Shown here in pieces: positions 469 through 49,780 of a stretch of DNA of 64,000 nt (position 1 is its first letter; the number at the start of each line of letters is the position of its first letter). Under the pieces are notes generated by a model, which searched no databases, had not been told where the DNA came from, and worked only from the letters and a program-made list of their open reading frames with translations. Made by a program: the position numbers and the translations under genes. Source of the DNA: Zanthoxylum bungeanum (Eukaryota; Streptophyta; Magnoliopsida; Sapindales; Rutaceae); assembly GCA_019454045.1 (NCBI GenBank), contig SKCR01001883.1, positions 1-64,000 on the forward strand, written 5' to 3'.

Positions 469-613
469 TCCCACTTGATTAATCGGCTCGGGCTGGATTC
501 GTTCCGCCGAGACCACTTGATTAATCGGCTCTGGGCTGGATTCGTTTCGCCGAGGCCACTTGATTAATCGACTCGGGGCTGGATTCATTCCGCTGAGGCC
601 ACTTGATTAATCA
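469..613 (+). repeat. 43-bp tandem repeat, about 3.4 copies
   Basis: The phrase CCACTTGATTAATCGGCTC followed by a GGGCTGGATTCGTTCCGCCGA-like segment recurs every 43 bases. The last partial unit runs directly into the 83-bp array: its CAGCTCGGGG becomes the start of the first 83-bp unit. The two arrays therefore share a short common word and may have arisen one from the other. Confidence 0.9.
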
Positions 614-1990
614 GCTCGGGGTCGGGGTACGTCCCACCGAGTCAGCCCTTCGGACTGGGGACGTAACATTCCCCCAGGTCCAAGTGCCTTTCTCAGCTCG
701 GGGTCAGGGTACGTCCCACCGAGTCAGCCCTTCGGTTTGGGGACGTAACATTCCCTCAGGTCCAAGTGCATTTCTCAACTCGGGGTCGGGGTACGTCCCA
801 TCGAGTCAGCCCTTCGGACTGGGGACGTAACATTCCCCCAGGTCCAAGTGCCTTTCTCAGCTCGGGGTCGGGGTACATCCCACCGGGTCAGCCCTTCGGA
901 CTGGGGACGTAACATTCCCCCAGGTCCAAATGCCTTTCTCAGCTCGGGGTCAGGGTACGTCCCACCGAGTCAGCCCTTCGTATTGGGGACGTAACATTCC
1001 CCCAAGTCCAAGTGCCTTTCTCAACTCGGGGTCGGGGTACGTCCCACCGAGTCAGCCCTTTGGACTGGGGACGTAACATTCCCCCAGGTCCAAGTGCCTC
1101 TCTTCACTTGGGGTCGGGTTATGTCCCACCGAGTCAGCCATTCGAACTGGGGACGTAACATTCCCTCAGGTCCAAGTGTCTTTCTCAGCTCGGGGTCGGG
1201 GTAACGTCCCACCGAGTCAGCCCTTCGGACTGGGGATGTAACATTCCACTAGGTCCAAGTGCCTTTCTCAGCTCGGGGTCGGGGTACGTCCCACCGAGTC
1301 AGCCCTTCGGACTGGGGACGTAACATTCCCTCAGGTCCAAGTGCCTTTCTCAGCTTGGGGTCGGGGTACGTCCCACCGAGTCAGCCCTTCGGATTGGGGA
1401 CGTAACATTCCCCCAGGTCCAAGTGCGTTTCTCAGCTCGGGGTCAGGGTACGTCCCACCGAGTCAGCCCTTCGGATTGGGGACGTAACTTTCCCCCAGGT
1501 CCAAGTGCCTTTCTCAGCTCGGGGTCGGGGTACGTCCCACCGAGTCAGCCCTTCGGACTGGGGACGTAACATTCCCCCAGGTCCAAGTGCCTCTCTTCAC
1601 TCGGGGTCGGGTTACGTCCCACCGAGTCAGCCATTCAGACTGAAGACGTAACATTCCCCGAGGTCCAAGTGGCTTTCTCAGCTCGGGGTCGCGGTACGTC
1701 CCACCGAGTCAGCCCTTCGGACTGGGGACGTAACATTCCCCCAGGTCCAAGTGCCTTTCTCAGCTCGGGGTCGGGGTACGTCCAACCGAGTCAGCCCTTC
1801 GGACTGGGGACGTAACATTCCCTCAGGTCCAAGTGCCTTTCTCAGCTCGGGGTCGGGGTACGTCCCACCGAGTCAGCCCTTCGGACTGGGGACGTAACAT
1901 TCCCCCAGGTCCAAATGTCTTTTCTCTCTCAAGGTCAGGTTGCGTCCCACCAAGTCAGCCATGCGGACTGGGGACGTAACATCCTTCCAG
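613..1990 (+). repeat. 82-83-bp tandem satellite-like array, about 17 copies
   Basis: The unit begins CTCAGCTCGGGGTCGGGG, continues through TACGTCCC, ACCGAGTCAGCCC and TTCGGACTGGGGACGTA, and ends at CCAGGTCCAAGTGCC. Counting the GGGGACGTAAC word gives about 17 units at 82-83-base spacing, the last one (1905-1990) being divergent. Within each unit TACGTCCC and GGGACGTA form a perfect 8-base inverted repeat. The open frames predicted across this array are by-products of the repeat. The array lies between the presumed pol end and the 3' LTR of element G. Confidence 0.95.
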
Positions 1991-2405
1991 GTCCAAGCAT
2001 CTCTCACAGCTCAAGACAGGATCACATGCCACCGAGCACATCATCGTTAGCTCAGAGGCAAAATTTTCTCCTCACAATCGAGATTGGATCAGTCAGGGGT
2101 CAGGACCTCTAAATCTCTGGTATAGATATTACAGAGGAGAAGTAATTTTTAGTTTGGACAACAAGATGAACTTCATCTCCTGATGGAACGACCCAAGTAA
2201 GCAATTTGCTTTGAGGTGGAGAATCGTTCTGAATAGGGTCAGCATCTCTAATAACCGAGGATATGAAGATAGAAACAGAAGACTTAGTTGATGGAAAAGG
2301 CAATTTCTCAGTGATTTCTGGAACGACCACCAGCAAGGCGATCAGCACACCATCTTTTTTTATAGTTCCCGGCATCAACTCGCAAACTCGTTGTTACCGA
2401 GAACT

Positions 2406-30110: not shown

Positions 30111-30844
30111 TAACTAAGCCAGTTATCTGGGGTTGTGATGAAATCCAATATCACCGGTTTATAAGGGATTAAATTATAGTTTGGGTAATATAAAGGTTTA
30201 TTTATTGAGTCTTAATATTAATGCTTTTTATTAACTGGCCATTAATAAAATTGAACTGGTAAACTTAAAATGAACTAGACTTAGGGATTTTAAGTTTAAA
30301 GCTTTAGACTCAATAGTCCACGATCTTCCTTGAGGATAAATAACCCTTTAATAGATTTCCTTACAGGATAGGAATATATATGTCGGGTGGGGGTAGCCAT
30401 AATTGGAACTTAATCTCAATGAATCCAGGTAATTTGGTTGACATAGACATATGGTTCAATTGAGTTATACTGGATATTTGTAGTTGACCATCGGAATAGG
30501 CTTTTACATAATTTGGTGTTCCAGGTTAATAAATCAATATTTTACCCAACTATAAGATAACCACTTCATCTTTAAAATGATATTGGAAGAAATCACAACC
30601 CTAGATAGTTTTTAATATTGAATTTTCTTAAACCTACTTTCGAACAATTTTATTTACTTATTTTTAAATTTAGAATCGTCACCTTTTCAAATCTATCAAA
30701 CAACCTGTTAGATACTAGTAATCATTTGACCTCATAAAATTAATAGCTTATGTATTAAGTCCTCGTGGGATCGATACTTTTTATACTACTTGAATGATAT
30801 GTGCGCTTGCGTTATACGCACGTGATTACGCACCGGTCAATACA

Positions 30845-32541
30845 CAAGGATCATCTTCGTTTTGAATGAAATCATATTCTTTTATGATCTCATCAAAATA
30901 TTGGTTCCATGACTGTGATGCTTGCTTCAGTCCATAAATGGACCGATTTAACTTAAAAACCTTGTTTGCAAGTCTAGGCACGATAAAACCGTCAGGCTGT
31001 TGCATATAAACATCCTCCAAAAGGTTTCCGTTAAGGAAAACGGTTTTAACGTCCATCTGCCATATCTCGTAATCGAAATATGCAGCAATTGCAAGCATTA
31101 TCCGAATGGATTTAATCATGGAAATCGGTGAGAAAGTTTCGTCGTAGTCGACACCATGTCGTTGACGATAGCCCTTCGCTACAAGCCTAGCTTTGTACAT
31201 TTGTACGTTTCCATCCATGACGGTCTTATTCCTGAAGACCCGTTTGCATCCAATAGGCTTTACACCTTCTGGTACATCAACCAGTGTCCAAACTTGGTTG
31301 GTATACATGGAGTCCATTTCGGACTTCATGGCTTCTTGCCATAAAGCGGAATTGATATCTTGTATCGCTTCCTTATACGTAGCTGGTTCCTTATCCTGAA
31401 TAAGATTAATATCTACATGAGGTGAGATTAGAAACCCATACCTCTCAGGTTGTTTCCTGACTCTTTCCGACCTACGCGGTCCTTGTGTAATAGAAGATTG
31501 TGGTACAGTCTCATCCCGGATGGACTGTTCTTGTTCCGCTGAGGATTCTATGCCGGAAACAGTATCACTCCGATTTTCATCGAGTTCTACTTTCCTCCCA
31601 CTAACCACTGCATTTAGGAATTCCTTCTCAAGGAAAACTGCATGTAGAGCAACAAATACTTTGTTCTCTCGTGGGTGATAGAAGTAATATCCTTTGGTTT
31701 CCCTAGGATATCCTACGAATAGGCATTTATCCAATTTGGGCTCAAGTTTGGTACCTTCCAAACGTTTGACGTATGCCCAGCATCCCCAAATCTTCAGGAA
31801 TGAGAAACCCGGTTTCTTTCCTGTCCATATCTCATATGGTGTCTGTTGTACAGACTTTGACGAAACCTTATTCAAAATAAGAATTGCACTGTTTAATGCA
31901 TATCCCCAGAAGGAAATAGGTAGCTTAGTTAGACTCATCATAGACCTAACCATGTCCAACAAAGTTCGGTTTCTCCGTTCGGACACACCATTTAATTGCG
32001 GTGTTCCAGGAGGAGTCCACTGTGAAAGAATACCATATTCTTTCAAGTAATCTAGAAACTCATTGCTCAAGTATTCGCCACCACGGTCCGACCGTAATGT
32101 CTTTATACTCTTACCGGTCTGTTTTTCTACTTCATGTCGAAACTCTTTGAATTTCTTAAAAGTTTCCGACTTGTGTCTCATAAGATACATATAACCATAA
32201 CGCGATGCATCATCTGTAAAGGTTATGAAGTATTCATATCCACCTCTAGCCTGGCTAGACATGGGCCCACATACGTCACTATGAACGAGGGCTAACAGTT
32301 CAGTGGCGCGTTCACCTTTACCGCTAAAAGGTGATTTAGGCATTTTGCCTAATAAGTAAGATTCGCATACGTCATATGAATTTGGATCAAATCCGTCCAA
32401 GTACCCACTCTTCGAAAGTGTGGATATGCGAGTCTTGTTTATGTGTCCCAGATGACAGTGCCACATATAAGTTTCATCTTTATTACTTATTTTAAGCATT
32501 TTGTTTGTTATATTACATGTTTGAGATTGATTTATATTCAA
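30845..32541 (-). pseudogene. Copia integrase and N-terminal reverse transcriptase of element B
   Basis: Open for about 565 residues. In order: HLGHINKTRISTLSKSGYL with C...C (zinc-binding integrase N-terminus); integrase core with HSDVCGP, SDRGGEY and GVSERRNRTLLDM (D, D, E catalytic residues); RSERVRKQPERY (end of the integrase C-terminal region); LWQEAMKSEMDSMYTNQVW (start of reverse transcriptase); KARLVAKGYRQRHGVDYDET; YEIWQMDVKTVFLNG with the first catalytic Asp; and KQASQSWNQYFDEIIK. The frame breaks at DPCV where solo LTR H is inserted, and the last residues predicted there are read from H. All catalytic residues are present. Confidence 0.93.
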
Positions 32542-32579
32542 AACATAAATATTATTATTTGCAACAGCAATGCAAATTT

Positions 32580-33104
32580 CTACATCATTTTATACACAAA
32601 ACACCCAGTGTTCCTGAATACAAATGTATACCCACATTGGGTTAACATAAATACAGAAATAATATTCCTAGTCAAACTAGGTACATAATAACAATCATTA
32701 AGTTCAAATACCTGCCCCGAGGGCAGTTCTAAAACAAAAGTGCCAACGGCCAAAATGGCGACTGGTGCCCCATTTCCGACGCGTAGATCAATCTCCCCTG
32801 AGGCCAGTCTCCTGCTAATCCGCAGATCCTGCACATCAGTACATATGTGAGTACCACAACCAGAATCAAAAATCCAATTTTTAAAACTAGAAATAGTCAT
32901 GTTTATCTCAATAACAAACATACTTGAAGCCGGTGCCTTGCCCGCTTTAATCTCCTTCTGGAGCGCCTTGTACTCGCGGTAGTCATGCTTCCAGTGACCC
33001 CACTTGCCGCACTGGAGGCAAACATCCTGAGATTTGTCCTTAGGCTTCCTAGAAGCCTTTGACGATTTGGCCTTGCCCTTTCTTTTATGCTTCTTCTTCT
33101 TCAC
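32580..33104 (-). pseudogene. Copia zinc knuckle and protease of element B
   Basis: A lysine-rich N-terminus is followed by the zinc knuckle CLQCGKWGHWKHDY, whose last cysteine is replaced by tyrosine. The protease has WIFDSGCGTHIC (DSG catalytic motif) and LNDCYYVPSLTRNIIS. Frameshifts near 33110 and near 32585 separate it from gag and from integrase. The tyrosine replacement would probably abolish zinc binding. Confidence 0.9.
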
Positions 33105-35977: not shown

Positions 35978-37351
35978 TGTTGGTTTCTATTGATGTCCCA
36001 AGATCATTTTAAGCCACGAAATAGAATGAATACAATAAAGAAATGTGGCGGAAACACACTTACATTGAACGGATTGGATGTGATGCTCAACAAAATTTAT
36101 CCTCCAAGCTTTCCAAGAATTCGGCCAAGATGAAATCAAAATCTCCAAGCTTTGTTTTATCTTTCCAAGCTCTTGATTAGGTTTCCCTATCACTCTTGAT
36201 GATCCTTGAAGAGTGCTAGCTCTATGAAATATTTTGCAACAAAATCCTTCAAGTTTTTCCCTTCCAAATTCGGTGAAGATGAAAGAAAAAACAGAGAGGG
36301 AAAAAGCTCACTGGTTTCGGTCAAGAAAAAATTGAGAGAGAGAGAGTTATATTTTTCAATCTTTGTTTTTAAAAAAAACGTATATGAAAAACAATTACAA
36401 ATTTTGGTAAATGGCTTACAAAAAGTCAAAGCCAATTTTGGCTCCAAAATTGTTATAAATGATCTCAACAACTTGCATCATGAATAGTGACAACATGTCA
36501 CTCACAAAAAGTGACTTTGACATCTATCACCTTTAAATGACAAGTGATGTGATTCGCGATGTGACTTGTGGGCCCCACTTGATTCAAAATGCGAGTGGCC
36601 CCGCAAACACTTCCGGGCTCGGTTTCGCTAATTCCAAATTAACGAACTTCTGTCGCAACATAATTAAATAATTATGCCTAGCGAAATTACTATTCACATC
36701 GCTAACGAATTAATTCTAAATTAACTCGTTTGCCTGAATTAAAATCTAATTTTAATTCCGCGTTGAAATCCAATTTCCTTTAATATATCGAATATATTAT
36801 TTTGTCGATTAATTCCAAATTAATCTTTCTCTCTCTTCAAATAGTACTTTATCCAAGATAAAGTTTCTCCGCAATTAATCTCAGCTTAATTATGCTCGAA
36901 TCATATGTCATCGGTGAATCTTCGGGAAGCGACCAAGAGATCCCTGGATATGTTGGCAGTAAGTATGGTCGTCGGACTATCTGAACACGTGCGTACCTCG
37001 TACTACGTTTTTATCGATTTACGAGACAATGTTGGCTTCTAGCAAAGCGCCATGCCTACCCAATTCTCCAGAAATATTCTTAATGGAATATACGATCTAT
37101 ATCAGGCGTAGTATATCGTTGTATTGTGTATTGCAATCTAGTATTGGATGTCACATGCAAGGCCTGGGGCTGGAATAGTGTCTGCCCCGTACGAAGCACA
37201 TATCGGATATCAAGCAACTAGTCTCTTTGAATCGGATAATCATGACCTTGTCATATTATCTCGATGGTTGCAATACAATAGAGAACCAGTTCTGAATCCC
37301 TGCATGATCATCATCTCCATATGTCTGAAGTGATACTTCCGTCTTAACATC
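35978..37351 (-). repeat. 5' LTR of element B, left part
   Basis: Starts TGTTGGTTTCTATTG on the plus strand and matches 25747-27120 of the other LTR. It stops at ACATC (37347-37351), where element J is inserted, and resumes after the second ACATC at 49781-50366. Confidence 0.92.
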
Positions 37352-38202
37352 TGATCGGCGTAAACACACACGTATAACGCAAGCGCACGTATCGTTCAAG
37401 TAGTATAAAAATATCAATCCCACGAGGACTTAATATCTAATCTTTTAATTTTATGAGGTCAAATGATTACTAATATCTAACAGTTGATTTATTTATTTGA
37501 AATTGTGACGATTCTAAATTTAAAAGCAAGTAAATAAAATTATTCGAAAGTAGATTTTAAGAAAATTCAATATTAAAAACTATCTAGGGTTGTGAATCTT
37601 TCCAATAATATTTAAAGATGAAGTGGTTATCTTATAGCTGGGTAATATATTGATTTAATAACCTGGAACACTAAATTATGTGAAAGCCTCTGTCGATGGT
37701 CAGACACAAATACCCAGTTTAACCCAATTGAACCATATGTCTATGTCAACCAAATTATCTGGATTCATTAAGTTTAAGTTCCAATTATGGCTACCCCCGC
37801 CCAACAGCTATATGTCTATCCTGTAAGGAAATCTATTAAAGGGTTATCTATCCTCAAGGAAGATCGTGGGCTATTGAGTCTAAGGTCTCAAACTTAAAAT
37901 CCCTATATCTAGTTCATTTTAAGTTTACATAATCAATTTTATATTACCCAAACTATAATCTAACCCTTATAAACCGGTGATATTGAAATTCATCACAACC
38001 CTAGATAACTAACTTAGTTATGACACATGGCCAGGGCTAGTAAAAACTTAAAAGTAAAAGTCATAAAGTAAAAATGCGAAATAGTAAATGCGGTAAAGTA
38101 AATACTGAAAAGTAAAATAAAAAAAAAATGCTAAGGTAAAAGGAATTACTTTTACTATTTCAGATATCTCCCATAAAATAATATATAAACTTGTGATAAT
38201 AT

Positions 38203-38404
38203 TACCAACCAGCCATATAGGCGGTAACCTGATTAATTCAAATTAAGTCCGACCAGCCATAAAGGCGGTATGATTTGTCCATGAACCTGCCATATAGGCG
38301 GTAAGAAAATTTAATTACCAACCAGCCATATAGGCGGTATCCTTGATTAGTCAAGTTTAAACCAATTTAAATTTAATAGCCAACCGACCAATATGGCGGT
38401 ATCC
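38203..38404 (-). repeat. LTR minisatellite, CCAGCCATATAGGCGGTA type, 5 copies
   Basis: The phrase ACC(A/G)(A/G)CCA.ATAGGCGGTA occurs five times at 35-65 base spacing. The same set is in the other LTR at 48569-48770, and three copies in reverse orientation are in solo LTR H. Confidence 0.8.
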
Positions 38405-38710
38405 TTATTAAGTCGAATTTTAAATAGTAAATATATTAGATTTAAGGGAGATTAATCTAAATAGTAACAGTAAAAGAATTACCTTTCACCTTAGCAAGGA
38501 GAAGTTACCTCATCATGGTTGAATAGTAAAACTGAAACAGTAAAAACAAGAAAAATTACTATTACTATTACAAAAAGTAATCACTATTACATAATGTAAT
38601 TAAAAATTAATTACAAAACTTAAATTAAAAGAAATTAGAGAGAGAACCTCCCTATTTACATCAAAGAAATGAGAGAGAATGGTGCCATTAAAACTGAAAT
38701 CTCGAGCTCA

Positions 38711-39175
38711 ACTTATAGATAATTTTTGCGTCATGCGTCGCGACGCCAAGGGCTTGCGCGTCGCGATGCCAAGGGCTTGCGGGTCGCGACGCTGGCTCTG
38801 TTGACTTTGGTCCACGCGAGTTGACCACGCGTGTTCTGTCGGCAGAATCTGGTGATCACACGTGCCACGCGGTAAAGGTGGTGCAATGAGAAGACGACAC
38901 GTGGCAGACGGCGATTGGCTGAGCTTTCGGTCCAATGAACATCTGACACGTGGCACGCGTTTGGGATTGGTCCAATGAGAGATTAATACGTGGCAGCATG
39001 TGATTCATCGGTGATTCGGTCCAATGAAAACTCGACACGTGGCACGCCCTTGCTTGGTCCAATGAGATTTCGACACGTGGCAGACGACGCATTTTAGCAG
39101 ATCTTCTGTGATGATGACACGTGTCACGGCGAACGTTAGCAAGTCCAATTACTCAGATTTTGACACGTGTCCCTC
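38711..39175 (-). promoter_or_regulatory. U3 promoter region in the 3' LTR of J: G-box/CCAAT array and TATA
   Basis: Eight ACGTG cores (seven CACGTG, one TACGTG) start at 38859, 38898, 38947, 38987, 39036, 39074, 39118 and 39164, spaced 38-49 bases. Four GGTCCAATGA words (CCAAT boxes) lie between them. Reading on the minus strand, the array lies directly upstream of a TATA-like ATCTATAAGTT at 38711-38720. CACGTGGC is the core bound by plant bZIP factors of ABRE/G-box type and by bHLH factors. Function is inferred from arrangement only. Confidence 0.65.
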
Positions 39176-39362
39176 GGCGCACGTTAGCATGGCCGGCGCA
39201 CTTTAGATGTCGCGATGCGTAGAGTCTTGGCGTCGTGACGCGCCCAAATTACCAAAATGCCATTTTTTGCCAATTTTCACTGTTTTGCTCTAAATCACTT
39301 TCAAAATGTCCTGAAACTTTATTTATCTACAAAATAACAAAAAACACATCAAAATATTCACA

Positions 39363-39376
39363 CCCCCAAACCTAAC
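39363..39376 (-). other. Polypurine tract of element J
   Basis: Minus strand GTTAGGTTTGGGGG lies immediately before the 3' LTR, preceded by GAGGACTAGCAAAA. This arrangement (GACTAGCAAAA, then TTTGGGGG) is typical of plant Gypsy 3' ends. Confidence 0.85.
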
Positions 39377-40737
39377 ATTTTGCTAGTCCTCGAGCAAAAC
39401 ATAGAATAAAATAACATAATAAAATTTAATTAAGCCACTTTCGTAGGGATCACGATTGCATTTAGCGTATGCAACAAGCCTTTAAACCCCTAAGTGTCCC
39501 TAGTAGACGAGTTGTAGTCTCGTGAGGGTTTACAACAATGATACCCACAAACATTTTACAAAAGTAAAAAGGTAGTGAAACTAATACACACAAAAGCAAA
39601 AAGACAAGAAAAGAGAATAAAGAAGTTAGTGACTAATCAGGTGAAACTTCTACTCCAAGTTACTAGTTGTTTTCTTTCTTTCTAAATTACTGAATAAGTA
39701 AATTCTCCGATTATATTTACCATTCTTCATATACACAGCTTAACAAAATATTAAACAACTCATTTTTTCCAACAACAGTCACAAGTATAGTTGATAAGAG
39801 AGTAATATTTTTGTCCTAAAGTTTTATCAGAATTCACACCTTTTTTGCAGCAATGGAATAATTTTTCAGATTTTTCTGATTTTTTCTTTGATTTTTCTCT
39901 ATTTTTTATTTATATACAATACCTTCCGTCTATGTAGCGAGTGTTGGGTCGGTGGCTCCCAACCAGTTGGCTTTAGGGCACCAGGTGTTAAGACACCCCT
40001 AAGGACTTAATTACTCAGACTTCAGATATATATTTTGCAGCATATTTGATCCATGTAACGAGCTTTGGGCCAGTGACTCCCAACCAGTTGGCTTTAGGGC
40101 ACCAGGTGTTAAAACACCCTTACATACTTAATAACTCGGATCTCAGTTTTTTTTTTTTTTTACTCCATCATTTTTTGAGATGTTTCCTCCAATTAAACTA
40201 GAGCACTGAATATTACAAACTTTTCAATTACAACTCATGTCCGTATTTTACTATGCATGTTGATAATACCTGCCAATTGAGCATATGAAGGTCCATTTTA
40301 GTCAGTGTTAAGGAGAATTTACAAATTAAATAATTTAAAATGAAATAAACAAAATTTAACTTGTTCCGAAATAAATGGTTTGAGATACGTATCAGGAGTG
40401 GGAACTCCTTATTCAGCTATCTCTCACCAATTTCACCTTTTTAGTCAAAATAAAAACACAAAATATTTTTGTAATTTTTGAAAATTTTTCAATTTTTTGT
40501 ATTTTTCGAAAAATTTTGGACTAAAAATAAAAATAACAAACAAACTAAAAACAAGGTACTGATCAACTAATTCCCTCCCCTAAACCTAAATGAGACATTA
40601 TCCCCAATATCTTAAATAGTAAAAAGAGAGTTAAGAAGGTCGTACATGGTTAGCTGAAAATCTACAGGAAATTAAAGGTTAAGATCCAGATTAATCCGAC
40701 GCCTCTTACCACGATCGTCTTCGGACCAATTTATCTT
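39377..40737 (-). other. 3' tail of element J with a duplicated structured segment
   Basis: Non-coding between the LOG-type stop codon and the polypurine tract. It contains a 121-base-period duplication (39927-40019 and 40047-40140) in which the potential stems TTGGG/CCCAA and GGTGT/ACACC are kept in both copies while loop bases vary. The rest is A/T-rich; nothing else was recognised. Confidence 0.65.
39927..40140 (-). repeat. Duplicated 121-bp segment with conserved hairpins
   Basis: Both copies share GTARCGAG, CCCAACCAGTTGGCTTTAGG, GCACCAGGTGTTAA and ACACCC. TTGGG at 39944 and 40065 pairs with the following CCCAA across a variable 10-base loop. GGTGT pairs with ACACC across TAAG or TAAA. 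As the element transcript is antisense to this text, the complementary stems would form in its RNA. Confidence 0.7.
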
Positions 40738-41325
40738 TTAAAGGATATGGTCAACTCGTGGTTCATAGGCTAAGAGTTGTTCTATTAGATCCGGAGCAGT
40801 TCTGGCAGTAAAGATGAGTTCTTTCAAAGGTTTTGACACGAATCCATTTCTTCGGGCATCATCAAGAAACACACAAAGAAAATCATAAAATCCATCAACG
40901 TTGAGCAGTCGAATTGGTTTCTGGTGTATGTTCAGGTTCTTCCAAGATAGCACAATAAAAATTTCCTCCAATGTACCCAAACCACCTGGCAAAGCAATAA
41001 AAGCATCAGCACGGTTAATCATTTCTACCAGTCGTTCAGACATACCTGGCACGATCAGTTCCTCTACGTTTGATGGTTCAATAAGATTTGCTTCTGCCAA
41101 GGCTTTTGGGATGATTCCCAAAACATGACTGCCTCTTTCCTGTACCGCTTTTGAAACGATCCCCATAAGTCCAAGATTGCATCCGCCATATATTAAGTGC
41201 ATATTCCTTGTAGCTAAGACTCGACCCAATTTATGTGTTGCTTCTATGTATTGTGGTTTAGTTCCAACACTACTACCGCAAAACACACAGATGTTTTCAA
41301 CTCGTCTTCTTAAAGTGGCTTCCAT
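40738..41325 (-). CDS. LOG-type cytokinin riboside 5'-monophosphate phosphoribohydrolase, carried by element J
   Basis: Intact 195-residue ORF without introns. LOG enzymes release the ribose 5-phosphate from cytokinin nucleotides (such as iPRMP and tZRMP), giving active free-base cytokinin in one step in the cytosol. Visible family features: ICVFCGSSVG near the N-terminus (residues 12-21), GGCNLGLMG at 47-55 (the usual third Gly is Cys), MSERLVEM at 95-102 holding the conserved Arg98 and Glu101, and the signature PGGLGTLEE at 113-121 (PGGxGTxxE complete). KPIRLLNVDGFYDFL follows. Length is close to plant LOG proteins (about 210-220). Host LOG genes usually have several introns; their absence suggests capture of a spliced message. 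It lies between integrase and the 3' LTR on the coding strand of the element. The start Met is followed directly by the family's N-terminal region. Activity is not proven; the G-to-C change at residue 49 lies near the nucleotide-binding loop. Confidence 0.93.
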   Translation of the reverse strand: MEATLRRRVENICVFCGSSVGTKPQYIEATHKLGRVLATRNMHLIYGGCNLGLMGIVSKAVQERGSHVLGIIPKALAEANLIEPSNVEELIVPGMSERLVEMINRADAFIALPGGLGTLEEIFIVLSWKNLNIHQKPIRLLNVDGFYDFLCVFLDDARRNGFVSKPLKELIFTARTAPDLIEQLLAYEPRVDHIL

Positions 41326-41574
41326 GTTTTACTATGGATGTCTTCAAAAGTGCAATGATGGGTTGAATTTATAATACCTGAAAAGGGTGAGTAAAAATAG
41401 CACAAGTATTTTCCAATGGACGATTAGTAGCAAAATAGTAAAATAAATCGTGATAGTAAAAAAGGTCTGGATTCTGTCGGAGAAAATAAAAGAAAACAAC
41501 AAAACAAATAACAATTATTAGGAAAAGACAAAGAGATATAATATTTACAAGAAAAGTAACGGATTGATCGACGT

Positions 41575-42156
41575 CTATGCGTCAGGGACAAGCTTCCCAT
41601 CCAATTTTCTTATAAATTGGCAAACAGGGTCTTTTTGAGTCAGATACCCGAGACTTAACAGTTTTCTTTCTTTTTGAAATTGTGTATGTAATTTGCGAAA
41701 GGCTATGTGAACATATCCACTGGGATGCGTCTCAAGAGTCGAAGATATATCATCTAAAGACTCCTTACTCAAGCCATCCCTAATGAATTTAAATTTTTCT
41801 TCGCGATTATCAGACACCATTCCTAAAGAACGACAATGAGTATTGCAATTCCAGCATGCACATTTATAACAAACACCCATTTTCTTAGCTCTATGTTTCT
41901 TTGCATAGGTGCTTCTTCCAAAACCAGGCAGATATGAAATAAAAGAGTCAGAAGACTCACATGCCAATCGGACCCGTGCTTCATTTACCCAACAAATGTC
42001 ATTAGGAACACCATGGATTATTAGTATCCTCATCCGTTCCAAGCGAGCTTTGTAGACTTTCATCAGAGATTTTTGAGGGAGAGAAGGAAATTGCTTGTGA
42101 AGATTTGTGAGAGCTTCTTCCATCTTGAAATGTCTTAATCTGCAAAAACTAAACAC
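41575..42156 (-). CDS. Basic cysteine-rich protein, possible zinc-binding nucleic-acid-binding protein, carried by element J
   Basis: Intact 193-residue ORF between the integrase end (42262) and the LOG-type ORF, same strand. A second in-frame Met at residue 12 could be the true start. A basic block GRSTYAKKHRAKK (residues 80-92) is followed at once by a cysteine cluster with Cys at 96, 99, 101, 104 and 108 (CYKC then CWNCNTHC), then KFKFIRDGLSKE at 121-132. There is no signal peptide or membrane segment, so it is not an obvious env. The layout (GRSxYA, RA, then CxxC, then a downstream FIxxG) resembles, from memory, the small cysteine-rich nucleic-acid-binding proteins of carlaviruses (Pfam Carla_C4), some of which suppress RNA silencing; here the later cysteines are more tightly spaced. 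Homology is a proposal, not shown. An alternative is an unrelated captured or novel zinc-finger protein. Confidence 0.7.
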   Translation of the reverse strand: MFSFCRLRHFKMEEALTNLHKQFPSLPQKSLMKVYKARLERMRILIIHGVPNDICWVNEARVRLACESSDSFISYLPGFGRSTYAKKHRAKKMGVCYKCACWNCNTHCRSLGMVSDNREEKFKFIRDGLSKESLDDISSTLETHPSGYVHIAFRKLHTQFQKERKLLSLGYLTQKDPVCQFIRKLDGKLVPDA

Positions 42157-42261
42157 ACAAAATTAAATCACACCAAATCACAATATATACATAAATTGCA
42201 TGGGTTACCTCCCTGCGAGCACTAAGTTTAGAGTCGTTAGCTAGACTTGACTTCTCGAATG

Positions 42262-43170
42262 TTAAGCTGGATCTGAAAGTGTGACACTTTCTTTTTGTCG
42301 CTCAATTGATTCACCCCAGTAGTGTTTGACACGCTGACTGTTAACCTTGAACGTGTTATTGGTATTGGGATCCAGTAACTCAACAGCTCCATAAGGTAAA
42401 ACCTGAGTGATCACAAATGGACCTGACCACCTAGATTTCAACTTTCCAGGGAAAAGTTTCAACCTCGAGTTGTACAACAACACCTGTTGCCTTGGTTCCA
42501 ACTGTCTGTGCACTATTTTTTGGTCATGTCATTTTTTGGTCTTTTCCTTGTACAATTTGGCATTCTCATAAGCCTGTAGGTGAAATTCCTCCAATGCGTT
42601 GAGTTGGTGAAGTCTTTTCTCTCCTGTAGCTTGTGAATCAAAATTCAACTTCTTCAGTACCCAGTACGCCTTGTGCTCAAGCTCAACTGGTAGATGGCAC
42701 GCTTTCCCAAACACCAATTGATATGGGGACATACCAATGGGTGTCTTGTAAGCTGTCCGGTAGGCCCATAATGCATCATCTAGTTTTGTAGACCAGTCCC
42801 TCCTTGTTGATCCAACGGTTCTCTCTATGATTCTTTTGATCTCCCTGTTTGAAACCTCAACCTGTCCATTTGACTGTGGATGATAAGTTGTGGTAACCTT
42901 GTAAGTAACTCCATATTTGGATAGGAGTGCATCGAAGTATCTATTGCAGAAATGTGAGCCACCATCGCTGATGATTGTACGAGGTGTTCCGAATCGAGTG
43001 AATATGTTCTTTTTAAGGAATTTGATCACCACTTTTGAATCATTGGATGGCAGTGCAATTGCTTCGACCCATTTGGAGATGTAGTCTACATCAATCAGGA
43101 TGTACAGGTTTCTGAATGATAGAACAAAGGGTTCCATGAAATCAATACCCCACACATCGAATATTTCCAC
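42262..43170 (-). pseudogene. Gypsy integrase of element J
   Basis: Core: [13 protein letters not shown] (first Asp), [12 protein letters not shown] (second Asp), [19 protein letters not shown] (Glu), and [19 protein letters not shown]. After a single TGA stop at 42529 (family pattern has Trp) the GPF/GPY module follows: LYNSRLKLFPGKLKSRWSG, PFVITQVLPYGAVEL. Residues typical of Athila elements are preserved. The upstream zinc-binding part (43173-43730) is interrupted by several stops. Confidence 0.9.
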
Positions 43171-44066
43171 TTCTAGAATGTTTTACAACGGTCCTTCATT
43201 TCTCCTCGAAATATTCCCCGTTCTCTGGCACCTGACACATTGAAAAGCAAAAAGATAAGCATCTTTAAAAAGATTGGGCTACAACAAACCTGATTGAAGA
43301 ACTTTTGCTGCAGTTTTTTTTCTGCTGAAGTGTCCGCCATATGGTGATGAATGACAGTGCTACAAAACACTGTTGATTTCCTCATGTGGAACACACCGTC
43401 TTAATAATTGATCAGCACATCATTTAAACAAGTACGGTTCATCCCAAACATAGTGCTTGACTTCTTTGAAGAACTTCTTCCGTTGTTGAGTTGTCCATTC
43501 CAACGGCCATTTTCCTGACACAATGTAGTTGACATAATCAGCATACCAAGGGACTTTCTATTGTTTCATGGCAAACAGCTGTTCATCAAGAAAAGTTTCT
43601 TTGATTGACAGATCTTTGTCAGCTGTTTCTCCATTCTCGAGCCTCGATAGATGATCTGCCACCTGATTCTCTGTTTCTTTCCTATCTCTGATCTCCACAT
43701 CGAATTCTTGTAGAAGAAGTATCCGACGGATCAATCTGGGTTTGGCATATTTCTTGTGATCAGATATTTGATTGCTGAATGATCTGTATAGACCACCACT
43801 TTGGGACCCAGCAGATAGGAGCAGAATTTGTCAAAAGCATACACAACTGCGAGCAACTCATTTTCAGTGGTTATGTAGTTGAGTTGAGCTTCATTAAGAG
43901 TTCTGCTGGAGTAGTAAATGGTGTGGAAAATCTTTGCTTTGCGTTGTCCCAAAACTGTACCTACAGCAAAATCACTAGCATCGCACATCACTTCAAATGG
44001 AAGGGTCCAGTCTGGTGCTACAATGATGGGGGCAGAAATCAGCTTCTGTTTTAAGATCTCAAAAGC
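43171..44066 (-). pseudogene. Gypsy RNase H and integrase zinc-binding region of element J
   Basis: RNase H frame: [60 protein letters not shown] (conserved D, E, D). A frameshift near 43740 leads into [18 protein letters not shown] and [10 protein letters not shown], then the integrase N-terminal zinc region with HCHSSPYGGHFS and CVRCQRTGNISRR, broken by about four stops. Confidence 0.88.
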
Positions 44067-44975
44067 TTACTGGCATTCTTTGGTGAAGTTGAAAGGCACA
44101 TCCTTCTCCAGAATATTGCAAAGAGGTTTTGAAATCTTGGAAAAATCTTTGATAAATCTCATGTAAAAACCTGCATGTCCGAGAAAGCTCATAATCCCTT
44201 TGACAGATGTTGGTGGAGGTACTTTTTCAATTGTCTCTATCTTTGCTTTGTCTACCTCAATCCCCTTTTGTGAGATCTGGTGTCCAAGAACAACGCCCTC
44301 ATGTACCATGAAGTGGCATTTCTCACAGTTGAGTACCAGGTATGTATCTTCGCACCTTTGTAACACATGTTCCAAATTTTGCAAGCAATGGTCAAAAGAA
44401 TCTCCAAACACAGAAAAGTCATCCATAAAAACCTCCATACTCTGCTCCAGCATGTCTGAGAAGATGGCCATCATGCAACGCTGAAATGTAGCAGGGGCAT
44501 TACATAATCCAAATGGCATCATGCGGTAAGAAAAAGTACCATAGGGACATGTAAAGGTAGTTTTCTCCTGGTCTTCTGGTGTGATGGCAATCTGATTGTA
44601 CCCTGAATATCCGTCCAGAAAGCAATAGAACTCATGTCCTGCCAGTCTGTCTAACATCTGGTCAATAAATGGTAGCGGAAAATGATCATTTCTCGTGGCT
44701 TTGTTAAGTTTCCTGTAGTCCATGCATACTCTCCATCCAGTCACCGTTCTTGTTGGAATTAGCTCATTCTTTTCATTGGTAACCACAGTAATTCCTCCTT
44801 TCTTTGGTACACACTGCATGGGACTCACCCTACTGTTATCTGAAATTGGGTAAATGATGCCAGCATCCAACCATTTGATGATTTCTTTCTTCACGACTTC
44901 CTTCATGATTGGATTGAGTCTCCGTTGATGCTCCACTGTGGGTTTGTACTCATCGTTCATCAGAATCTTATGCAT
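44067..44975 (-). pseudogene. Gypsy reverse transcriptase of element J
   Basis: 302 open residues: RRLNPIMKEVVKKEIIKWLD, AGIIYPISDNSRVSPMQCVP, WRVCMDYRKLNKATRNDHFP, FYCFLDGYSGYNQI (first catalytic Asp), MPFGLCNAPATFQRCMM, and VFMDDFSVFGD (the F-M-D-D box used by Athila elements). A TAA at 44067 separates it from RNase H and one TGA at 44997 from protease. All catalytic residues are present within this segment. Confidence 0.93.
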
Positions 44976-44996
44976 GTAAAAAGATGGATTAATGCC

Positions 44997-45956
44997 TCAA
45001 ATGTCTGCTATAGTCCAGCCAATGGCTCTTTTGTGTTCTCGTAATACTCTCAGTAGCTTTTCTTCCTGCTCCAATGTTAGTGAAGAAGAAATAATAACAG
45101 GTAATTCAGAAGTGTTTCCAAGAAATTCATACCTGAGATGACTCGGAAGTAACTTCAGCTCCAGCTGTGGTGGTTCTTCAATCAAAGGCTTGATTCGATC
45201 TTTCTTGGGCAGTTCCAAGCTTTCAACTGGTGGTGTCACTTTGAATAGTAATGGTTTGTCAAGGTAGTTGATACATTCCAGGATTTCAGCATCTAGCTCA
45301 TTGTCAGTCTTGTTGGTGATGCAAGCTTCAAGTGTATCTGTGGTATTTGGCTCAGTATCCTGAACGATACTATCAACAACATCAACTCTGAAGCATTCTT
45401 CTTCCTTTGCATCACTCGGGAATTTCATGGCTTTGAAAGTATTAAAGGTCACTTCTTGGTCCTGTACTTTCATCGTCAGTTCTCCTTTTTGCACATCAAT
45501 CACAGTTTTACCTGTAGCCAAGAATGGTCTCCCAAGAATGATAGGTATTTCTTTGTCTTCTTCCATGTCAAGGATGATGAAATCTGCTGGGAGAATTAGT
45601 TTGTCGACTTTGACCAGCACATCTTCAACAACACCTCTTGGAAATACGAGTGTTCGGTCAGCAAGTTGTAATGAAACTGAGGTAGGCATCACTTCTCCAA
45701 TCTGCAGTTTCCTGTAAATAGAAAAAGGCATCAAGTTAACATTGGCTCCTAAATCACATAAAGCCTTACCGATGTAATGTTCTCCAATGGTGAATGGGAC
45801 AGTGAAACTGCCGGGAACTTTCAAATTCGGGGGAAGTTTCCTCTGAATGATGGCGCTGCATTCTTCTGTCAATGTTACTGTCTCATAGTCTCCCAATCTC
45901 CATTTTCGTGAAAGAATATCTTTCATGAATTTGACATAGCTGGGCATTTCTTCCAA
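44997..45956 (-). pseudogene. Gypsy protease and linker of element J
   Basis: KALCDLGANVNLMPFSIYRK is the Athila-type aspartic protease motif (DLGA in place of DSGA). IIILDMEEDKEIPIILGRPF-like text follows, with the ILGRPFLATG flap region, then a charged linker up to LREHKRAIGWTIADI, which marks the start of the reverse transcriptase module. It is joined to gag by a frameshift near 45950. Confidence 0.9.
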
Positions 45957-45959
45957 TGC

Positions 45960-47549
45960 TTATGCAAATGGAATGTTGATATGTAGCTTTTTGAATACCT
46001 CCAAGAAACGAGCAAACTGCTTGTCTAGTTTGTTTTTCTGAAGTCGCTGAGGAAAAAGGTGGAGGTAGAATGATCTGATCTTTTTCTTTTTCCTTTGCTT
46101 CTTTTTCCTCCATCTGTGGAACTGCATCTTTTGGAATTTTCTCAATTGTTGCCTTGATTCCTACATCTTTGTTGATCTCAGTACCATTTTTCAAAGTAAT
46201 GGCTTGAATTTGCTCCTTTCCTCGGTTCCTTGGATTTGGTTCTGTGTTGCTAGGAAGATTACCTGGTGGTCTGTAACTCTGAGCATTGGCCAGTTGTCCA
46301 ATTTGATTCTCCAGTGCTTTAATAGAAGCTGATTGGCTCTGAATCACAGCATCGTACTTTTTTAACTGAGCCAGCACTTATGCTATTCCTGGTTCATTTA
46401 TCTGCTCCTGGCCTTTGTTTTGTTGCTGAAATCCAGGTGGTGGATAGTTTTGTTGGAATCCAGGTGGTGGATTGTTCTTTTGCCCTGGATTGTTGCTCCA
46501 TGAAAAATTAGGATGATTTCTCCACCCTGGGTTGTAGGTGTTGGAATATGGATTGTTCCCCTGTCTGTTGAAATTATTGACATAATTCACCGTCTCTTCA
46601 AGTTGGTTTGGTTCTGGTGCTCGTCCATATGGTGAACTTGTGGATCCAGTGGTAAAAATCTCCATGAATTTGCATATCTGATCCAGCTTGTTATTGACTG
46701 CTGTATTGACTCCACTTTCATAAATTCCTGCAATTCTTTGGATCATGCTCCTTGCTGTTGGCCACAAAGAATTGTTGTTGGCCATTTCTTCGATTAGGTT
46801 CCAGGCTTGATCTTCTCCTTTTGCCATCAGAGCTCCTCCAGCAGCAGCATCGATTGTGGTTCTCATTATTCCAGAATGCCCATTATAGAAAGTTTGGACT
46901 TGAAGCCATTTTGGAATCTCATGGTGAGGACATTTCCGGATCAAATCTTTGTATCTTTCCCAAGCTTCGTAGAGAGATCCGAGTCTTGTTGTATAAAGGA
47001 TGTGATGTCATTTCTCAGTTTTCCAGTTCTGGCTGGTGGAAAGTACTTTGCAAGAAATTTGGTGGCTAAAATGTTCCAAGTTGTGATGGAACCTGCTGGT
47101 AGTGAATGTAGCTAAGCTTTAGTTCTGTCCTTCAAGGAGTATGGGAAAATATGCAGTCTCATTGCTTATTCATCTTCTCGGTTGTAATTGAAAGTGCCGC
47201 AAACTTCCAGGAAGTTTCTGATGTGGGTATTAGGGTCTTCAATTGCATTTCCTCCAAACTGAACTGACTGCTGAATCATCTGAATGCATGTTTTTATGTC
47301 ACCCGCATTTGCTGGTAATGGAGGAAGTACAATACAAGAAATGAGTCTGTCAACCACCGGAATGGTTCTGTCTCGAATGGGAATTGATGGTGCAACATTC
47401 AAAGGTTCAGGTTCCATGTTGACTAAATCTTCTTGGCCTTCTCGCCGTTCCCTTCTCAACTGTCTGATGGTTCTTTCAATTTCTGGGTCAAGCGGTTGAA
47501 GTTCAAAGCTTCTGGTTTGTCTCATGAAGTTTTTGAGAACCTGAAACAC
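45960..47549 (-). pseudogene. Gypsy gag of element J (degenerate)
   Basis: Starts at 47549 (MFQVLKNFMRQTRSFELQPL). It reads to HIRNFLEVCGTFNYNRED, then across in-frame stops at 47166 and 47112 through SLPAGSITTWNILATKFLAK and YFPPARTGKLRNDITSF, and again open from 46944 (MIRKCPHHEIPKWLQVQTFY). The C-terminal part is rich in Asn, Pro and Gln (PGFQQNYPPPGFQQQ) and is followed after a stop at 46378 by a coiled segment (ALENQIGQLANAQSYRPPG). This is the gag layout of Athila-type elements. No zinc knuckle was seen. Confidence 0.88.
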
Positions 47550-47634
47550 AAGAAAATAAAAACAATAAGTAAAAAGAAAATTAGATACAAGTAACGGTAT
47601 CTAACCTCAAAACTAAAAGTGAAAGATAAATAAG

Positions 47635-47650
47635 TCCCCGGCAACGGCGC
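47635..47650 (-). other. Primer-binding site of element J (tRNA-Asp type)
   Basis: Minus strand GCGCCGTTGCCGGGGA, seven bases inside the 5' LTR. It matches the TGGCGCCGTTGCCGGGGA site of Athila elements, complementary to the 3' end of tRNA-Asp, with one change in the first bases. Confidence 0.9.
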
Positions 47651-47657
47651 AAAAACT

Positions 47658-49775
47658 TGACCGGCGTAAACACACACGTATAACGCAAACGCACGTATCG
47701 TTCAAGTAGTATAAAAATATCGATCCCACGAGGACTTAATATCAATCTATTAATTTTATGAGGTCAAATGATTACTAATATCTAACAGGTTGATTTATTT
47801 ATTTGAAATAGTGACGATTCTAAATTAAAAGCAAGTAAATAAAATTATTCGAAAGTAGATTTTAAGAAAATTCAATATTAAAAACTATATAGGGTTGTGA
47901 ATCCTTCCAATAATATTTAAAGATGAAGTGGTTATCTTATAGCTGGGTAATATATTGATTTATTAACCTGGAACACTAAATTATGTGAAAGCCTCTGTCG
48001 ATGGTCAGACACAAATACCCAGTTTAACCCAATTGAACCATATGTCTGTGTCAACCAAATTATCTGGATTCATTAAGTTTAAGTTCCAATTATGGCTACC
48101 CCCGCCCAACAGGTATATGTCTATCCTGTAAGGAAATCTATTAAAGGGTTATTTATCCTCAAGGAAGATCGTTGACTATTGAGTCTAAGGTCTCAAACTT
48201 AAAATCTCTATGTCTAGTTCATTTTATGTTTACCTAATCAATTTTATTAATGGCCAGTTGATAAAAAGCATTTAGATTAAAACACAATAAATATATCTTT
48301 ATATTACCCAAACTATAATCTAACCCTTATAAACCGGTAATATTGAAATTCATCACAACCCTAGATAACTAACTTAGTTATGATACATGGCTAGGGCTAG
48401 TAAAAACTTAAAAGTAAAAGCCATAAAGTAAAAATGCGAAATAGTAAATGCGGTAAATTAAATACTGAAAAAGTAAAATAAAATAAAATGCTAAGGTAAA
48501 AGGAATTACTTTTACTATTTACTATTTCAGATATCTCCATAAAATAATATATAAACTTGTGATAATATTACCAACCAGCCATATAGGCGGTAACCTGATT
48601 AATTCAAATTAAGTCCGACCAGCCATAAAGGCGGTATGATTTGTCCATGAACCTGCCATATAGGCGGTAAGAAAATTTAATTACCAACCAGCCATATAGG
48701 CGGTATCCTTGATTAGTCAGGTTTAAACCAATTTAAATTTAATAGCCAACCGACCAATATGGCGGTATCCTTATTAAGTCAAATTTTAAATAGTAAATAT
48801 ATTATATTTAAGGGAGATTAATCTAAATAGTAACAGTAAAAGAATTACCTTTCACCTTAGCAATGAGAAGTTACCTCATCATGGTTGAATAGTAAAACTG
48901 AAACAGTAAAAACAAGATAAATTACTATTACTATTACAAAAAATAATCACTATTACAGAATGTAATTAAAAATTAATTACAAAACTTAAATTAAAAGAAA
49001 TTAGAGAGAGAAACTCCCTATTTACATCAAATAAATGAGAGAGAATGGTGCCATTAAAACTGAAATCTCGAGCTCAATTTATAGATAATTTTTGCGTCCA
49101 GCGTCGCGACGCCAAGGGCTTGCGCATCGCAATGCTAGCTCTGTTGACTTTGGTCCACGTGGGTTGACCACACGTGTTATGTCGGCAGAATCTGGTGATG
49201 ACATGTGGCACGCGGTAAAGGTGGTGTAATGAGAAGATGACATGTGGCAGACGACGATTGGCTGAGCTTTCGGTCCAATGAACATCTGACATGTGGCACG
49301 CGTTTGGGATTGGTCCAATGAGAGATTAATACATGGCAGCATGTGATTCGCTGGTGATTCGGTCCAATGAAAACTCAACACGTGGCACGCCCTTGCTTTG
49401 GTCCAATGAGATTTCGACACGTGGCAGACGGCACATTTTAGCAGATCTTCTGTGATGATGACACGTGTCACGGCGCACGTTAGCAAGTCCAATTACTCAG
49501 ATTCTGAAACGTGTCCCTCGACGCACGTTAGCATGGCCGGCGCACTTTAGGCGTCGCGACGCGTAGAGTTTTGGCGTCGCGACGCGCCCAAATTACCAAA
49601 ATGTCCCTTTTTGCCAATTTTCACTGTTTTGCTCCAAATCACCTTCAGAATGTCCTGAAACTTTATTTATCTACAAAATAACACAAAACACATCAAAATA
49701 TTCACAAAGCTCAAGAAACTATACAAAATATTAGGTTAGATGAATGGGAAATAGTGATAGATTTACCACTCATCA
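47658..49775 (-). repeat. 5' LTR of element J (2118 bp)
   Basis: Plus-strand start TGACCGGCGTAAACACACAC and end TTACCACTCATCA, abutting the ACATC duplication. It is fuller than the 3' LTR. TATA (minus strand ATCTATAAATT) is at 49076-49086, and the array of G-box positions (49156-49513) lies upstream of it. Confidence 0.93.
49076..49513 (-). promoter_or_regulatory. U3 promoter of the J 5' LTR: TATA plus G-box/CCAAT array
   Basis: ATCTATAAATT on the minus strand at 49076-49086. Upstream on that strand are CACGTG at 49156, 49171, 49379, 49418 and 49462, AACGTG at 49508, and four decayed sites (CATGTG at 49202, 49241 and 49290; TACATGG at 49330) that are intact ACGTG sites in the 3' LTR. GGTCCAATGA occurs four times. 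The palindrome GCGTCGCGACGC lies on both sides of the array (49101, 49551 and 49574). Confidence 0.65.
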
Positions 49776-49780
49776 ACATC

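What the first reader, a model, noticed from the sequence alone, without database searches (positions are those of the whole stretch)
40738..41325. Intact intronless LOG cytokinin-activating enzyme gene inside an LTR retrotransposon
A full-length LOG-type ORF with PGGLGTLEE, GGCNLGLMG and the conserved Arg and Glu lies between integrase and the 3' LTR of element J, in the sense orientation, inside a unit bounded by LTRs and a perfect ACATC duplication. A mobile element that could raise active cytokinin in its host cell would be remarkable: cytokinin promotes meristem and cell division, which could favour germline transmission. Lack of introns points to capture of a spliced message. I am not aware of a described LOG-carrying Athila family, but cannot search.
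Basis: partly seen in the sequence, partly recalled or inferred. Interest (0 to 1): 0.93.

Follow-up and report, generated by a model that had tools for sequence, protein, structure and literature searches.

The report
Retrotransposon-borne, remodelled LOG gene
A plant jumping gene carries an old, slightly broken copy of a hormone-activating enzyme gene; in its relatives the binding pocket has changed and a tail that looks like a nuclear repressor signal has been added, next to a virus-like zinc-finger gene.

Summary
The LOG-type ORF is real (minus strand 41325-40738, PF03641 E 4e-36) and sits sense-wise between integrase and 3' LTR of an LTR element at 37352-49775 with an ACATC duplication. 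It is not full length: close relatives have 217 aa, this copy stops after codon 195 and departs from ten otherwise conserved positions. LOG in Ty3/gypsy elements (Citrus, Populus) is already in print. Ten capped paper searches showed no report of the following. (1) Element-type LOGs form one clade apart from six host LOGs. (2) 124 of 136 rows of at least 214 aa have LxLxL (EAR-type) within the last 12 residues and 129 a basic run (NLS-like); four host LOGs lack the LxLxL. (3) Catalytic Arg and Glu are kept (141 and 148 of 151), but the pocket His-Lys-Glu is complete in only 11 of 151. (4) A second accessory ORF (42123-41575) resembles carlavirus-type nucleic-acid-binding proteins (34 of 35 relatives match). 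Reading: an ancient accessory pair of an element lineage, probably nuclear and host-reprogramming, less likely a cytokinin activator. Anatomy and evolution are shown; mechanism is inferred, without expression data or biochemistry.

The parts
37352..49775 (-).
   Evidence: LTR pair plus ACATC duplication at 37347-37351 and 49776-49780
47658..49706 (-). 5' LTR (aligned part)
   Evidence: blastn with 37352-39362, 92% with gaps; K2P 0.0405 over 1984 aligned columns
37352..39362 (-). 3' LTR
47635..47650 (-). primer-binding-site-like stretch GCGCCGTTGCCGGGGA (tRNA-Asp type, recalled)
44067..44996 (-). reverse transcriptase piece (PF00078)
43731..43991 (-). RNase H piece (PF17917)
42529..43170 (-). 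integrase core (PF00665)
41575..42123 (-). accessory ORF 1: 182-aa protein of the viral nucleic-acid-binding (CRP/NABP) kind, frame complete
   Evidence: PF05515 6.2e-05 and PF01623 3.9e-04 for the 193-aa frame; relatives
40738..41325 (-). accessory ORF 2: LOG-fold protein, 195 aa, cut short by an early stop
40672..40737 (-). rest of the LOG frame beyond the early stop: 21 codons of the family tail (basic run + LDLNL), then a stop
39363..39372 (-). polypurine-tract-like stretch GGTTTGGGGG at the 3' LTR

Best explanation
The ORF is a decaying copy of an ancient accessory gene of a lineage of Ty3/gypsy (probably Athila-like) elements. A spliced host LOG message was taken up, most simply once, behind an accessory gene of the viral cysteine-rich nucleic-acid-binding kind. 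On the line of descent it gained a C-terminal basic run (NLS-like), then a terminal LxLxL (EAR-like, binder of TOPLESS corepressors), then lost the His-Lys-Glu of the adenine/prenyl pocket while keeping the phosphate loop and the catalytic Arg and Glu. I propose that the intact protein works in the nucleus as a LOG-fold dimer that recruits corepressor and binds or splits a nucleotide other than the usual cytokinin precursor, while its neighbour dampens silencing, both favouring the element. Shown here: clade, tail, pocket change, neighbour, break in this copy. Inferred: capture route, order of gains, nuclear site, TOPLESS binding, substrate, benefit.
For: One clade of element-type LOGs against six host LOGs (branch 100/100, tail columns left out of the tree) and a single change of the pocket label (96/85; one change in 98% of 200 bootstrap trees). 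LxLxL within the last 12 residues in 124 of 136 rows of at least 214 aa, basic run in the last 20 in 129 of 136; in 36 non-redundant rows L213, L215 and L217 are each Leu in 33 while 214 and 216 vary; of all 173 non-host rows, short ones included, 133 have LxLxL at or within two of the C-terminus and 128 also the basic run, against 0.35% LxLxL in shuffled proteins. R98 in 141 and E121 in 148 of 151; H96 38, K99 12, E124 11 of 151, all three in 11; 6 of 6 host LOGs have His-Lys-Glu. CgLOG: Lys100 adenine and prenyl site, His97 and Glu125 prenyl site; alanine swaps of AMP-site residues, S19A excepted, nearly abolish activity (PMC4979012 section 6); positions matched by structure with an offset of one. 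Neighbour: PF05515 and PF01623 each match 34 of 35 relatives at E up to 0.01; four Cys invariant in 35 and nearly so in 51 rows; dN/dS 0.27 against L024. Linkage elsewhere: Citrus gene model P0236 is CRP then LOG; equal contig lengths 8723 and 4511 for a LOG and a CRP hit, chance 0.0036 by jitter. Viral CRPs with NLS and zinc finger are silencing suppressors, and one acts as a transcription factor causing hyperplasia (passages of PMC12172455).
Against: No test of localisation, TOPLESS binding, enzyme activity or expression. EAR and NLS are short motifs. 12 of 136 long rows lack the LxLxL, and basal rows such as P0030 and P0051 end in KRRRLD or KKRRLA with the old pocket. Arg98 is missing in 10 of 151 rows, so catalysis is not universal. 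Plant LOGs that share the critical residues can differ in product (passages of PMC11593424), so residues do not fix activity; the same paper reports a C-terminal motif 8 in land-plant LOGs, whose sequence I did not see. Only this window shows a LOG inside an element at DNA level; the relatives are known to me as proteins, many on short unnamed contigs, and are called element-type by tree, copy number and tail. The host set is six sequences, two of them fragments without a tail, and the hits were drawn by similarity to retro-type queries from capped lists. L024, a related element, has no LOG.
Confidence: 0.42

Rival explanations
1. The element LOG is a working cytokinin activator: it frees iP from iPRMP in the host cell, promotes division and so helps germline spread.
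For: LOG fold, PGGxGTxxE, Arg and Glu kept; a basal group (11 of 151 rows) keeps His-Lys-Glu; residues alone do not predict the product of plant LOGs; the neighbour resembles a viral protein family one member of which causes hyperplasia.
Against: His-Lys-Glu is not complete in 140 of 151 rows nor in this copy; alanine swaps of AMP-site residues nearly abolish CgLOG activity; this copy is truncated and has lost four conserved glycines.
Confidence: 0.22
2. The protein is a catalytically idle scaffold: the LOG fold serves only to dimerise the NLS/EAR-like tail.
For: Pocket change with kept fold and tail; Arg98 missing in 10 of 151 rows.
Against: Arg98 and Glu121 kept in 141 and 148 of 151 rows, hard to explain without chemistry or ligand binding.
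Confidence: 0.17
3. The LOG is a passenger with no use to the element: captured once, carried along by copying.
For: This copy is broken; a related element, L024, has integrase, CRP and a polypurine-like tract but no LOG.
Against: Reading frame, catalytic residues and a patterned tail kept over deep branches; a passenger would not keep alternating leucines.
Confidence: 0.12
4. One-off recent capture of a host LOG by this single insertion.
For: No introns in the ORF.
Against: Nearest rows are element-type LOGs at 81-84% identity, the four full-length host LOGs 49-50%.
Confidence: 0.01

Closest known systems
LOG/YgdH domain in plant Ty3/gypsy elements (Citrus, Populus; PMC9289625, abstract and section 12 seen; Steinbauerova et al. 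2011, content recalled, paper not held)
   Same: LOG-type extra ORF in Ty3/gypsy elements
   Different: Tail, pocket change, CRP neighbour and single clade are not mentioned in the section that I read
Host LONELY GUY enzymes (AtLOG3 2a33, AtLOG8 1ydh)
   Different: Three pocket residues replaced; family tail with basic run and LxLxL; inside an element
Carlavirus/mandarivirus cysteine-rich nucleic-acid-binding proteins (PF01623, PF05515)
   Same: Basic run followed by four cysteines; Pfam match in 34 of 35 relatives
   Different: Encoded by an LTR element; about 182 aa with long conserved flanks; usual cysteine spacing Cx2Cx4Cx3C (100 of 120 rows)
Orchid Ty3/gypsy with captured AlkB m6A demethylase (PMC9289625, abstract and section 12 seen)
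   Same: Captured enzyme domain fixed in an element lineage, with a proposed role against host surveillance
   Different: Different enzyme; there the activity was shown in vitro

Membership tests
LONELY GUY (LOG) family | LOG fold and Pfam PF03641 | tested here: met
LONELY GUY (LOG) family | PGGxGTxxE with catalytic Arg and Glu | tested here: met
   (window; 141 and 148 of 151 relatives)
LONELY GUY (LOG) family | adenine/prenyl pocket His-Lys-Glu of cytokinin-active LOGs | tested here: not met
   window S-L-I; 11 of 151 relatives have all three; so filed as LOG fold, not as a cytokinin-active LOG
LONELY GUY (LOG) family | iPRMP phosphoribohydrolase activity | not testable with these tools
   needs enzyme assay
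Ty3/gypsy LTR retrotransposon | LTR pair, 5-bp duplication, PBS-like and PPT-like stretches | tested here: met
Ty3/gypsy LTR retrotransposon | RT-RNase H-integrase order | tested here: met
   (44996 down to 42529, minus strand)
Athila lineage | placement by RT/RH/INT phylogeny | not tested
   no reference set of plant element domains at hand
Athila lineage | no chromodomain or second RNase H, tRNA-Asp-like PBS, extra 3' ORF | tested here: inconclusive
   no such Pfam match in the pieces scanned, PBS-like stretch, two 3' ORFs; non-chromoviruses use several tRNAs (passage of PMC6317226)
Viral CRP/NABP (PF01623, PF05515) | profile match above the curated cut-off | tested here: met
   window: PF05515 23.5 bits (cut-off 23) met, PF01623 20.8 (cut-off 20.9) just missed; relative P0121 passes both
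Viral CRP/NABP (PF01623, PF05515) | silencing suppression, nuclear site | not testable with these tools
   needs plant assay
EAR-motif repressors | LxLxL motif | tested here: met
   124 of 136 long relatives; in the window it lies beyond the early stop
EAR-motif repressors | TOPLESS binding | not testable with these tools
   needs interaction assay

The most novel reading that the evidence does not exclude
A lineage of plant LTR retrotransposons has turned a captured hormone enzyme into a nuclear, TOPLESS-recruiting LOG-fold protein with a new nucleotide substrate, and deploys it together with a carlavirus-type zinc-finger silencing suppressor: a two-protein host-manipulation module carried by a retrotransposon.
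Probability: 0.3. Interest if true: 0.85.

Novelty: new variant of a known kind. Interest (0 to 1): 0.6.

Why it matters
Most extra ORFs of plant retrotransposons have no known use. Here one can be read: a captured enzyme whose pocket and tail changed on a tree in what looks like a definite order, beside a protein of a viral silencing-suppressor family. That gives clear tests of whether retrotransposons carry effectors against host transcription and silencing. It also warns that plant genes annotated as LOGL10 (P0041, P0052, P0055 in Populus) may be element genes and not cytokinin enzymes.

Tried and rejected
One-off capture: rejected. Plain cytokinin activator: kept as a rival. PTS1-type peroxisomal tail: considered from the last residues and dropped, since position -3 is Leu and the alternating pattern fits LxLxL better (rule recalled). 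Relatives in viral contigs: CRP none; LOG none with the window protein, 23 weak LOG-fold loci with A1, not followed. CRP structure: mean pLDDT 58.5, too poor to search. PDB sequence search with the CRP profile: one match at E 0.7, ignored. L024 tblastx against the window gave, beyond the CRP, only pieces of about 11-45 residues as part of chained scores; one of 11 residues falls in the LOG frame's span, taken as noise. Papers: ten searches, whose listings are capped at 10-20 papers, showed no paper on a CRP/NABP gene in a retrotransposon or on an element LOG with an EAR-like tail; subscription papers and supplements were not searched. dN/dS of LOG copies: not possible, no second DNA copy. Integrase dS saturated (pS 0.865).

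Full report

It is not full length. Its nearest full-length database relatives have 217 aa (P0001 and P0002 84%, P0003 81%). In the window the frame stops after codon 195 and beyond the stop still reads a 21-residue tail with a basic run and LDLNL before a further stop. The window protein differs at ten positions that are one residue in at least 90% of 151 relatives, including G49, G83, G87 and G139. So this copy is a relic, and any function must be read from relatives.

A family, not an accident. Two searches listed 177 distinct LOG hits (lists capped at 120 each, of 7864 and 7739 that passed). Reevesia gives nine listed genes under eight name prefixes that I take for chromosomes, and one cluster holds 205 members (P0289), as expected of repeats. 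A tree of 47 rows with the tail columns removed separates six host LOGs (branch 100/100, length 0.5) from the rest; the loss of the His-Lys-Glu pocket needs one change (96/85). I call the rest element-type; only for the window do I see the element itself.

The tail. Of 151 element-type rows 136 have at least 214 residues; 124 of these have LxLxL in the last 12 residues and 129 a basic run in the last 20. In 36 non-redundant rows position 208 is Lys or Arg in all, 210 likewise, and 213, 215, 217 are Leu in 33 each, with 214 and 216 variable. Over all 173 non-host rows, short ones included, 133 have LxLxL at or within two of the C-terminus and 128 have both features; shuffled proteins have the LxLxL in 0.35%. 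The four host rows whose ends were visible lack it. LxLxL is the EAR motif that binds TOPLESS corepressors (recalled). Basal rows P0030 and P0051 have the basic run but end in KRRRLD and KKRRLA and keep the old pocket; P0038 has old pocket and LxLxL; in most other tree rows LxLxL and a changed pocket go together. The order basic run, then LxLxL, then pocket is an inference from that tree with host LOGs as outgroup; loss of LxLxL in the basal rows is not excluded.

The pocket. PMC4979012, section 6 (read), names Arg99 and Glu122 as proposed catalytic residues, Met96, Lys100 and Glu121 as adenine site, and Met96, His97, Lys100, Glu125, Trp129 as inferred prenyl site. Window numbering is one less (model 2-195 on chain 3-196). 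Kept: Met95, Arg98, Glu120, Glu121, Trp128. Changed: Ser96, Leu99, Ile124. Among 151 relatives Lys99 is found in 12, His96 in 38, Glu124 in 11, all three in 11, while Arg98 is found in 141 and Glu121 in 148. This speaks against a normal cytokinin activator but does not exclude it: plant LOGs with the same critical residues can make different products (passages of PMC11593424).

The neighbour. The ORF 42123-41575 (182 aa) scores with Viral_NABP 23.5 bits (cut-off 23) and Carla_C4 20.8 (cut-off 20.9) in the window; of 35 relatives, 34 match each of the two families at E up to 0.01. Its four cysteines and the KKRRA run are invariant or nearly so. Viral CRPs of this kind have NLS and zinc finger, act as silencing suppressors, and chrysanthemum virus B p12 acts as a transcription factor that causes hyperplasia (passages of PMC12172455). 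CRP and LOG go together elsewhere: the Citrus model P0236 is CRP followed by LOG ending in LDLTLRL, and hits P0071/P0154 and P0078/P0145 share contig lengths of 8723 and 4511 (chance 0.0036 by jitter of hand-copied lengths). But the CRP also occurs without LOG: L024, a 3330-base plant-type contig binned in a bacterial MAG, has integrase, an open CRP frame and a polypurine-like tract about 250 bases on, and no LOG by tblastn with four LOG queries. So the LOG probably joined an element that already had the CRP, or was lost in L024's line. CRP dN/dS between window and L024 is 0.27.

What is in print. PMC9289625 (abstract and section 12 seen) found the YgdH domain in Ty3/gypsy consensuses of Citrus and, with a filter off, Populus, and cites Steinbauerova et al. 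2011; I recall that paper as reporting two Athila-like elements with LOGL4 similarity, but it is not held. Ten searches of the library (listed under Tried and rejected, listings capped) showed nothing on a CRP gene in a retrotransposon, on the EAR-like tail or on the pocket change.

Verdict. The most likely account is an ancient accessory pair, viral-type CRP plus a remodelled LOG, that acts on host transcription and silencing. The anatomy and evolution are shown here; the mechanism is not.

Noticed in passing
window 42123-41575 against L024 1799-2347: The CRP gene keeps codons unusually well: of 112 identical residues 32 have a changed codon, against 80 of 135 in the integrase core, and only 1 of 20 in the last 26 codons. 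No other frame is open in either copy, so an RNA element or exchange between elements is possible.
   Followed up: partly
window 49707-49775: 69 bases lie between the start of the 5' LTR, as set by the polypurine-like tract of the other end, and the target duplication; the 3' LTR lacks them.
   Followed up: partly
L024 1-3330: A plant-type retroelement contig sits in a MAG labelled Candidatus Nomurabacteria, probably contamination of the public record.
   Followed up: partly
L001-L023: IMG/VR contigs encode distant LOG-fold proteins (27-59% identity over the best segment).
   Followed up: no
window 529-2141: A tandem array with an 82-base period; 17 register copies of a 300-base reference were listed.
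   Followed up: no
window 30826-32589: Ty1/copia-type integrase and RVT_2 frame on the minus strand, 587 codons.
   Followed up: no
P0041, P0052, P0055: Populus proteins named LOGL10 in public records carry the element-type tail and, for P0041, the changed pocket, so they may be element genes.
   Followed up: partly
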